A DNA stretch of 34,385 bases, from NCBI GenBank assembly GCA_027623205.1, contig JAQBYC010000045.1:1-34385 (forward strand), read 5' to 3'. A program made the translations under genes and the position numbers. The stretch is from Pseudomonadota bacterium. GTDB lineage: Bacteria; Pseudomonadota; Alphaproteobacteria; GCA-2731375. Of the stretch, positions 7,354 through 9,318 are shown piece by piece (positions within the stretch are counted from its first letter, which is position 1; each line of letters begins with the position of its first letter). Under the pieces are notes generated by a model. That model was not told where the DNA came from and did not search any database. It saw only the letters and a program-made list of their open reading frames with translations.

Positions 7354-8262
7354 CTATTCAAAGAAGTCTTCGTCAATTTTCTTGAGGTATAGGAGTTCTT
7401 CGTTCCGGCAGCCTATGTTGTATCGGATCATCAGGCGCGCGAGATGGACGCCGTCGACCAGAACAATGCGCGTGCCCAATCCCTTTGCGGTTTCAGTTGC
7501 CGATGAACTGAAGCCAGATGTAGTAACGAAGATCCCCTTCTGGGCTTTTTTCAAACTCAAAGCGCCAAAAAAGCCCCGAATTGCGCTGGCGCCGACATTA
7601 TTGCCGTCCGCATACCGTTTGGCCTGGACGTAAATTTGATCGACGCCCAATGGGTCCTGGTCAATGACGCCGTCGACGCCGTCGTCGCCGCTCCTGCCTA
7701 AGGCACGGCCAGCATCTTCCGATGTGCCGCCATAACCCATGGCGATCAATAGCTCCACAATTAGGTTCTCGAAAAAGGCAGGGCTTGCCTCCCTCACCCT
7801 GTCAAGAAGTTCACCGGATAGGGCCAATGTGATTATCTTATGGGCGGCCCTTAACTCTTCGTCTGGAGTTATCGCGCTGTCTATCGAGGCAACGGTGGTC
7901 TGGGCTTTTTCATCTTTTTCCGTGGTTCGGTTCAGGAATTGCTGAAATTCGTCAAACTGTTCCAGATACTCCTTATTGATATGGGCGGACTGGTCGGTCA
8001 GGGTCGATTTGCCCCGGTCCGTAATCACGAAATGCGCTCGCTTTGTTGCCCTTACGAGACCGGCTTGCTTGAGATAGCTCTTCGCCCAATGAACGCGGTT
8101 GCCGAATTTGGTCTGTTTGCCACTGGGTAGAAGCTCATCACGCTCGTCATCGCTAAGACCTAACTTAGTGACGAGTGTTGCCACAACATCACTGATCCTG
8201 ACTTCGCCGCCAGCCGCGCATTCCAGCGTGGGCCGCATCAGAGCTTGATAGTCTGGTATCAT
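7354..8262 (-). CDS. mrr: Mrr-type restriction endonuclease
   Basis: A 302-residue protein with the two-domain layout of Mrr. The N-terminal Mrr_N winged helix covers about residues 8-90 (YQALMRPTLECAAGGEVRIS, HWAKSYLKQAGL, ITDRGK). The C-terminal PD-(D/E)XK nuclease domain shows FENLIVELLIAMGYGG, then GDDGVDGVID (catalytic Asp) and VQAKRY (the QxK half of the site), then FVTTSGFSSSA. Mrr enzymes cut methylated DNA, so no partner methylase is needed, and none is seen. Its base composition is visibly less GC-rich than that of the neighbours, and it stands alone between two gene-poor stretches, consistent with horizontal acquisition. Start at ATG 8262. Confidence 0.9.
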   Translation of the reverse strand: MIPDYQALMRPTLECAAGGEVRISDVVATLVTKLGLSDDERDELLPSGKQTKFGNRVHWAKSYLKQAGLVRATKRAHFVITDRGKSTLTDQSAHINKEYLEQFDEFQQFLNRTTEKDEKAQTTVASIDSAITPDEELRAAHKIITLALSGELLDRVREASPAFFENLIVELLIAMGYGGTSEDAGRALGRSGDDGVDGVIDQDPLGVDQIYVQAKRYADGNNVGASAIRGFFGALSLKKAQKGIFVTTSGFSSSATETAKGLGTRIVLVDGVHLARLMIRYNIGCRNEELLYLKKIDEDFFE

Positions 8263-8688: not shown

Positions 8689-9318
8689 ATGTCAGAACCG
8701 ATCGTATTGGAAATATTCACTGATTACGTTTGACCGTGGTGTTATCTCAGTACCGGGCGTATTGAAAAGCTGAAACGGAATTTCGATATCGAGGCGAAAT
8801 GGGTGCATTTTCCCCTGCACCCCGACACCCCCCAGGAAGGCCGCAGCCTGGCGGATTTGTTCGCGGGCCGGGATATGGACCTGGATGCCATGTACACCCG
8901 CATGAAGGGGCTGATGGACGCCGAAGGGCTGCCCTACAGTCACCGTACCCACACCTACAACAGCCGTCTGGCCCAGGAACTGGGCAAATGGGCCGATACC
9001 CAGCCGGGCGGCGAGGCCATTCACGATGCCTTGTACCGGGCCTATTTCGTCGACGGCGTGAACGTGGGCGATGTGGAGGCCCTGCTGGTGGTGGCCCAGG
9101 CGGTGGGCCTGGACGTCGAGGCCGCGCGCGAGGTGCTGGAAAGCCGCAGCTTCAAGGACGCGGTCGATGCGGATTGGGAAAAATCGCGGCAGTATGGGGT
9201 GACCGGCGTGCCCACTTTTGTCGCCGGCCGCCAGGGCGTGGTTGGGGCCCAACCCTATGAAGCGCTGGAACAGCTGCTGCAGGCGGCCGGGGTCGGGGCA
9301 AAATCGGAGTCGGCCTGA
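8689..9318 (+). CDS. FrnE/DsbA-family thiol oxidoreductase, probable selenoprotein (UxxC, in-frame TGA at 8731-8733)
   Basis: Read from ATG 8689, the frame gives MSEPIVLEIFTDYV, then TGA, then PWCYLSTGRIEKL, and stays open to a TGA at 9316-9318: 209 residues if TGA 8731 is read through, the usual FrnE length. FrnE proteins carry DxxCPWCxxG at this place, so the TGA replaces exactly the first catalytic cysteine (residue 15), and Cys18 remains. The rest is intact: HPDTPQEG, the helical insertion, DWEKSRQYGVTGVPTF with the cis-Pro loop near 175. A SECIS-like hairpin lies at 8747-8765. AAGGAAAG at 8672-8679 is a possible ribosome site. FrnE-type enzymes catalyse dithiol-disulfide exchange. Alternatives are a nonsense mutation of TGC/TGT or a sequencing error. 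An automatic caller would start at GTG 8803 and lose the active site. Confidence 0.8.
8747..8765 (+). promoter_or_regulatory. Candidate bacterial SECIS hairpin
   Basis: Directly after the in-frame TGA (8731-8733) the RNA can form UCAGUAC / GUAUUGA, 7 pairs including one G-U, closing a 5-nt loop CGGGC. The loop begins 20 nt after the UGA. Bacterial SECIS elements are known as short hairpins within the coding region, with the apical loop roughly 16-37 nt past the UGA and a G among the first loop positions; this hairpin fits on all three counts. It would bind SelB carrying Sec-tRNA. Folding was done by eye. Confidence 0.7.

What the first reader, a model, noticed from the sequence alone, without database searches (positions are those of the whole stretch)
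8689..9318. Probable selenoprotein: FrnE/DsbA-family oxidoreductase with a Sec-x-x-Cys active site
Seen: ATG 8689 opens a frame that reads DYV-TGA-PWCYL and continues without another stop for 195 codons through a complete FrnE-like domain with an intact cis-Pro loop. The TGA falls precisely on the first cysteine of the family CxxC motif. TGA is used as a normal stop elsewhere in the window, so this is not a reassigned code. Known: Sec commonly replaces the attacking Cys of thioredoxin-fold CxxC motifs, and I recall Sec-containing DsbA-like proteins from marine metagenomes (not verified). Inference: this is a UxxC oxidoreductase that ordinary gene callers truncate to a domain without its redox centre. 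The alternative is a recent nonsense mutation, but the open frame after it looks fully conserved.
Basis: partly seen in the sequence, partly recalled or inferred. Interest (0 to 1): 0.9.

Follow-up and report, generated by a model that had tools for sequence, protein, structure and literature searches.

The report
Selenocysteine-containing FrnE/DsbA-like oxidoreductase gene
The in-frame stop codon is real and almost certainly encodes selenocysteine, the rare 21st amino acid, in the active site of a redox enzyme; it is a well-supported new member of a selenoprotein family described in marine bacteria in 2005, not a new kind of thing.

Summary
ATG 8689 opens a 209-codon frame with one internal TGA (8731-8733), at the first position of the family's CPWC motif (U-P-W-C). 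(1) The window's own genome carries tRNA-Sec, selA, selB and selD. (2) Of 80 close relatives, 67 have TGA at this column and 13 have Cys (TGC/TGT); none has any other residue. (3) Twenty bases after the TGA lies a 7-bp hairpin with a 5-nt loop. It pairs in 99.4% of cells, has compensatory double changes in four of seven pairs (0 of 500 shuffles reach this), fixes otherwise rare codons, and is gone from the Cys forms. (4) selA is present in 26 of 29 sampled TGA-form genomes but 3 of 13 Cys-form genomes (p = 4e-5). (5) The predicted fold (pLDDT 93.5) matches Deinococcus FrnE best. Nonsense mutation, sequencing error and code change are practically excluded. The family is known: DsbA-like, COG2761, UxxC selenoproteins from the Sargasso Sea (2005) and Global Ocean Sampling (2008). 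New details are the RNA element's covariation and a tree in which Cys forms appear to derive twice from Sec forms. The likely role, cytosolic thiol-disulfide exchange, is inferred; substrate and reductant are unknown.

The parts
8689..9318 (+). CDS of the selenoprotein, 209 aa with Sec at residue 15, stop TGA 9316-9318
8731..8733 (+). In-frame TGA (UGA), predicted selenocysteine codon, first position of the U-P-W-C motif
   Evidence: TGA in 67 of 80 relatives, TGC/TGT in 13
8740..8742 (+). TGT, resolving Cys18 of the UxxC motif (the only Cys in the protein)
   Evidence: invariant in the alignment
8747..8765 (+). Predicted bacterial SECIS hairpin: stem TCAGTAC (8747-8753), loop CGGGC (8754-8758), stem GTATTGA (8759-8765); 20 nt between UGA and apical loop
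   Evidence: covariation and conservation in 68 Sec genes, lost in 13 Cys genes
9199..9219 (+). cis-Pro loop region of the thioredoxin fold (VTGVPTF)
   Evidence: translation and conservation

Best explanation
The gene encodes a roughly 23 kDa cytosolic FrnE-type (DsbA superfamily) selenoprotein. UGA at codon 15 is read as selenocysteine by SelB and tRNA-Sec because of a hairpin 20 nt downstream (bSECIS). Sec15 is the attacking residue and Cys18 the resolving residue of a U-P-W-C centre, which cycles between selenenylsulfide and selenolate/thiol to exchange disulfides in cytosolic substrates. Shown by computation: the TGA, its conservation, the RNA element, the Sec machinery in the same genome, the fold and the motif. 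Inferred: actual Sec insertion, thiol-disulfide exchange activity, cytosolic location (no evident signal sequence). Substrate and electron donor are unknown.
For: tRNA-Sec with anticodon tca; selB 399.5 bits; selA 582.1 bits; two selD genes, one with its own in-frame TGA. TGA 67, TGC 10, TGT 3 at the column in 80 relatives, 61-93% identical, from Alpha-, Beta- and Gammaproteobacteria, Acidobacteriota, Rokuibacteriota and Myxococcota. All twelve full-length matches of 70% identity or more in 30 kindred genomes have TGA. Hairpin: 99.4% of cells paired, 4 of 7 pairs with double compensatory change, 0/500 shuffles as high, not reproduced by sliding. Codons CTC, AGT, ACC, CGT, ATT in the hairpin are 88-99% fixed against a mean of 62% elsewhere, although CGT and AGT make up only 8% and 6% of Arg and Ser codons in the rest of these genes. 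The hairpin is not formed in Cys forms. selA in 26/29 Sec-form vs 3/13 Cys-form genomes, Fisher p 4e-5. AlphaFold pLDDT 93.5 with residue 15 at the N-terminus of the first helix; best PDB matches are D. radiodurans FrnE (TM 0.85-0.87) and SCO1869.
Against: Folded alone, the hairpin is weak (-5.9 kcal/mol, no better than shuffles) and misses the free-energy cut-off of -7.5 in the published bSECIS model (PMC13188914); the support is comparative. Two of the kindred TGA-form genomes (G003; G025, 77% complete) and 3 of 29 sampled ones lack a detectable selA, as expected for incomplete assemblies but not proven. No conserved gene neighbour suggests a pathway. No protein-level data.
Confidence: 0.97

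Rival explanations
1. Recent nonsense mutation or sequencing error in an ordinary Cys-type FrnE gene (pseudogene).
For: A single-base change from TGC or TGT gives TGA; the window comes from a fragmented assembly (228 contigs).
Against: The same TGA is found in 67 of 80 relatives from several phyla and in all close orthologues of the genus; the rest of the gene is conserved; the hairpin is under selection at RNA level.
Confidence: 0.005
2. TGA is reassigned to Trp or Cys genome-wide (alternative code), or read through without Sec.
For: TGA is read through in this gene.
Against: Sec machinery is complete in the genome. The gene itself ends in TGA, and the long ORFs of the window close normally under table 11. 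The only substitutes at the column are Cys codons, never Trp. Cys forms lose the hairpin and mostly lack selA.
Confidence: 0.01
3. A short independent ORF starting at GTG 8803 is the true gene and the upstream TGA is its natural boundary.
For: A mechanical ORF of 171 aa exists there.
Against: Residues 1-30, including the first strand and the active-site helix, are strongly conserved in both Sec and Cys relatives, and a FrnE domain without them has no redox centre.
Confidence: 0.01

Closest known systems
DsbA-like selenoprotein family (COG2761 / PF01323, UxxC): Sargasso Sea 2005 (PMC1088965), 'DsbA 1' of GOS 2008 (PMC2398784), 'DsbA-like protein form 1' (PMC13188914)
   Same: Same Pfam domain, same Sec position (U of UxxC), predicted bacterial SECIS just downstream, abundant in marine bacteria; COG2761 is the FrnE group (from my own knowledge).
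   Different: Published member sequences could not be fetched here, so orthology with this exact clade is very likely but not tested sequence against sequence.
FrnE of Deinococcus radiodurans (DR_0659; PDB 5cnw, 5cp1, 5coh)
   Same: Best sequence and structure match; CPWC against UPWC; predicted cytosolic DsbA-superfamily oxidoreductase, with a mutant sensitive to cadmium and diamide (PMC8945050).
   Different: DrFrnE uses Cys and has a C-terminal CXXXXC pair thought to regenerate its active site; the window protein has Sec, is 209 aa long and has no Cys other than Cys18.
Cys-type FrnE paralogue in the same genome (C134:14607-15212, L103)
   Same: Same family, about 30% identity, Cys at the active-site column.
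   Different: Separated from the Sec clade by a very long branch; no TGA.

Membership tests
DsbA-like (FrnE, COG2761/PF01323) UxxC selenoprotein | DSBA-like thioredoxin domain over the full length | tested here: met
   PF01323 E 9.6e-37, residues 7-198; fold matches FrnE, TM 0.85-0.87
DsbA-like (FrnE, COG2761/PF01323) UxxC selenoprotein | In-frame TGA at the first position of the CxxC motif, with Cys in homologues | tested here: met
   TGA 67, Cys codons 13 of 80; PDB FrnE has Cys there
DsbA-like (FrnE, COG2761/PF01323) UxxC selenoprotein | bSECIS hairpin geometry: loop 3-9 nt, stem 4-16 bp, G in the first two loop positions, 16-37 nt from the UGA | tested here: met
   Loop 5 nt (CGGGC), stem 7 bp, 20 nt spacer; model from PMC13188914
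DsbA-like (FrnE, COG2761/PF01323) UxxC selenoprotein | bSECIS minimum free energy at most -7.5 kcal/mol (search-model cut-off, not a definition of the protein family) | tested here: not met
   -5.9 kcal/mol for the hairpin alone, -7.04 for the consensus. The papers say that some elements of known selenoprotein genes miss this model's constraints, so this lowers the fit to that model, not family membership
DsbA-like (FrnE, COG2761/PF01323) UxxC selenoprotein | Sec-decoding genes selA, selB, selC, selD in the same genome | tested here: met
DsbA-like (FrnE, COG2761/PF01323) UxxC selenoprotein | Sec detected in the protein | not testable with these tools
   needs mass spectrometry or 75Se labelling
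Deinococcus-type FrnE with C-terminal CXXXXC | Second conserved Cys pair at the C-terminus | tested here: not met
   No Cys besides residue 18 in the 209 aa; also absent in S. roseofulvus FrnE (PMC8945050)

The most novel reading that the evidence does not exclude
Within a widespread, mainly marine and soil FrnE subfamily, Sec is the ancestral state: the sampled Cys forms (a 12-member Rhodospirillales clade and one betaproteobacterium) arose from Sec forms by loss of Sec, together with loss of the hairpin and usually of selA. In this subfamily the exchange would have run from Sec to Cys, at least twice.
Probability: 0.6. Interest if true: 0.4.

Novelty: new member of a known kind. Interest (0 to 1): 0.3.

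Why it matters
Ordinary gene callers would truncate this enzyme to a piece without its redox centre, here and in dozens of related genomes. The comparative set (80 Sec, 20 Cys sequences) gives a clean test bed: a compact, covarying bSECIS with natural Cys controls that lack it, in a family whose activity, as far as the reviews read here show, has not been characterised.

Tried and rejected
Folding the region downstream of the TGA as a single sequence gave no signal above shuffles; the signal is comparative only. Looking for conserved neighbours around the gene in 80 loci gave only genus-level synteny (an SDR-family gene, purF, cvpA-like and radA-like genes, named by eye), no functional partner. 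Literature search for 'FrnE' with 'selenoprotein' found nothing relevant; the family is filed under 'DsbA-like'. Nonsense mutation, sequencing error, code reassignment and internal start were considered and rejected (see rivals). One call fetched an irrelevant E. coli stretch, not used.

Full report
Observation. The window at 8689-9318 (+) encodes MSEPIVLEIFTDYV-U-PWCYLSTGRIEKL..., one TGA at 8731-8733 followed by 194 open codons and a terminal TGA. The read-through product is a full-length DSBA-like domain (PF01323, E 9.6e-37), and the closest solved relatives by sequence are D. radiodurans FrnE and Streptomyces SCO1869, in which position 15 is the first Cys of CPWC. A plain ORF list gives only a 171-aa piece from GTG 8803 lacking the active site.

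Is the TGA conserved? A scan of one genome per species returned 80 relatives. At the aligned column 67 have TGA, 10 TGC and 3 TGT; nothing else occurs. The TGA forms come from Alpha-, Beta- and Gammaproteobacteria, Acidobacteriota, Rokuibacteriota and Myxococcota (record titles, taxonomy; all are metagenome-assembled genomes, so single assignments may be wrong). In 30 genomes most related to the window's own, all twelve full-length matches of 70% identity or more carry TGA; distant matches (about 27-33%), including a paralogue in the window's own genome, carry Cys. A recent mutation or a sequencing error cannot produce this.

Machinery. The same genome (5.0 Mb, 97% complete) has a tRNA-Sec with anticodon tca, selB (399.5 bits), selA next to selB (582.1 bits), and two selD genes. 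One of these selD genes is itself a selenoprotein with an in-frame TGA in its GGGUGSKI motif (my reading of the sequence); the other is a 758-aa fusion of an NADH-dehydrogenase-like domain (named from its sequence, not tested) with SelD.

RNA element. Twenty nucleotides after the TGA, counted to the apical loop, lies TCAGTAC-CGGGC-GTATTGA (8747-8765). Across 68 Sec genes (50 distinct rows) 99.4% of cells pair; four of seven pairs show changes on both sides that keep the pair (12 cells; none of 500 shuffles reaches this, and sliding the partner by 1-3 columns destroys it). The U-A to C-G exchange at one pair couples an AGT-to-AGC (in one case AGT-to-ACC) change with an Ile-to-Val change. The codons in the hairpin are 88-99% fixed although, elsewhere in these genes, conserved residues have a mean top-codon share of 62%, and the fixed CGT and AGT are rare choices (8% of Arg and 6% of Ser codons). 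In the 13 Cys forms the stem is broken. The geometry fits the published bacterial SECIS model (PMC13188914), but the free energy of the hairpin alone (-5.9 kcal/mol) misses that model's cut-off of -7.5 and is not better than shuffles. I therefore rest the case on comparative evidence.

Sec and Cys forms. In a tree of 100 proteins the 80 Sec and 13 near Cys forms make one fully supported group against distant Cys FrnEs. The 13 Cys forms fall in two places inside it: a fully supported Rhodospirillales clade of 12, and one betaproteobacterial sequence nested with Sec forms with strong support. The label needs three changes on the tree, at least two forced by well-supported branches. With the root on the distant Cys FrnEs this reads as one gain of Sec and two reversions to Cys; the inner branching is poorly resolved and the outgroup branch is very long, so the direction is likely, not shown. 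Consistently, selA is found in 26 of 29 sampled Sec-form genomes but in 3 of 13 Cys-form genomes (Fisher p 4e-5). The selA-less Sec-form genomes are probably incomplete assemblies, which I could not verify.

Mechanism. AlphaFold gives a confident DsbA-type fold (pLDDT 93.5; computed with Cys in place of Sec), with residue 15 just before the first long helix, and the best solved matches are FrnE structures (TM 0.85-0.87). No signal sequence is evident, so the protein is probably cytosolic, as FrnE proteins are predicted to be (PMC8945050). Sec15 should be the attacking selenolate and Cys18 the resolving thiol. Unlike D. radiodurans FrnE there is no C-terminal CXXXXC pair, so regeneration must come from another reductant such as glutathione or thioredoxin (inference). 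No neighbour conserved outside the genus suggests a substrate.

Known or new. A DsbA-like selenoprotein assigned to COG2761 with a UxxC motif was reported from the Sargasso Sea in 2005 (9 sequences; PMC1088965), again as 'DsbA 1' in the GOS data (63 sequences; PMC2398784), and is listed in the 2022 and 2026 reviews (PMC9312934; PMC13188914). By domain, motif and Sec position this gene belongs to that family; I could not align it to the published sequences directly. It is a new, very well supported member of a known kind. The parts I did not find described in the passages I read are the covariation of its RNA element and the evidence that Cys forms may derive from Sec forms.

Noticed in passing
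L098 (own genome C63:21997-22926): selD is itself a selenoprotein gene: one in-frame TGA in the HGGGUGSKIAP motif (stop count; motif read).
   Followed up: partly
L099 (own genome C163:12743-13660), ORF 262-2538: Second selD copy as a 758-aa fusion of an NADH-dehydrogenase-like N-terminus with a Cys-type SelD; why the genome holds both a Sec-type and a Cys-type fused SelD is unexplained.
   Followed up: partly
L103 (own genome C134:14607-15212): Ordinary Cys-type FrnE paralogue, about 31% identical, coexists with the Sec form.
   Followed up: partly
L057, L064, L083 (genomes G032, G034, G035): Three genomes with the Cys form of the subfamily still carry selA, so Sec-to-Cys exchange in this gene may precede loss of Sec decoding.
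   Followed up: no
window 7354-8262 (-): 302-aa ORF upstream of the selenoprotein gene that looks like an Mrr-type restriction endonuclease (recognised by eye, not searched); not among the conserved neighbours in other species.
   Followed up: no
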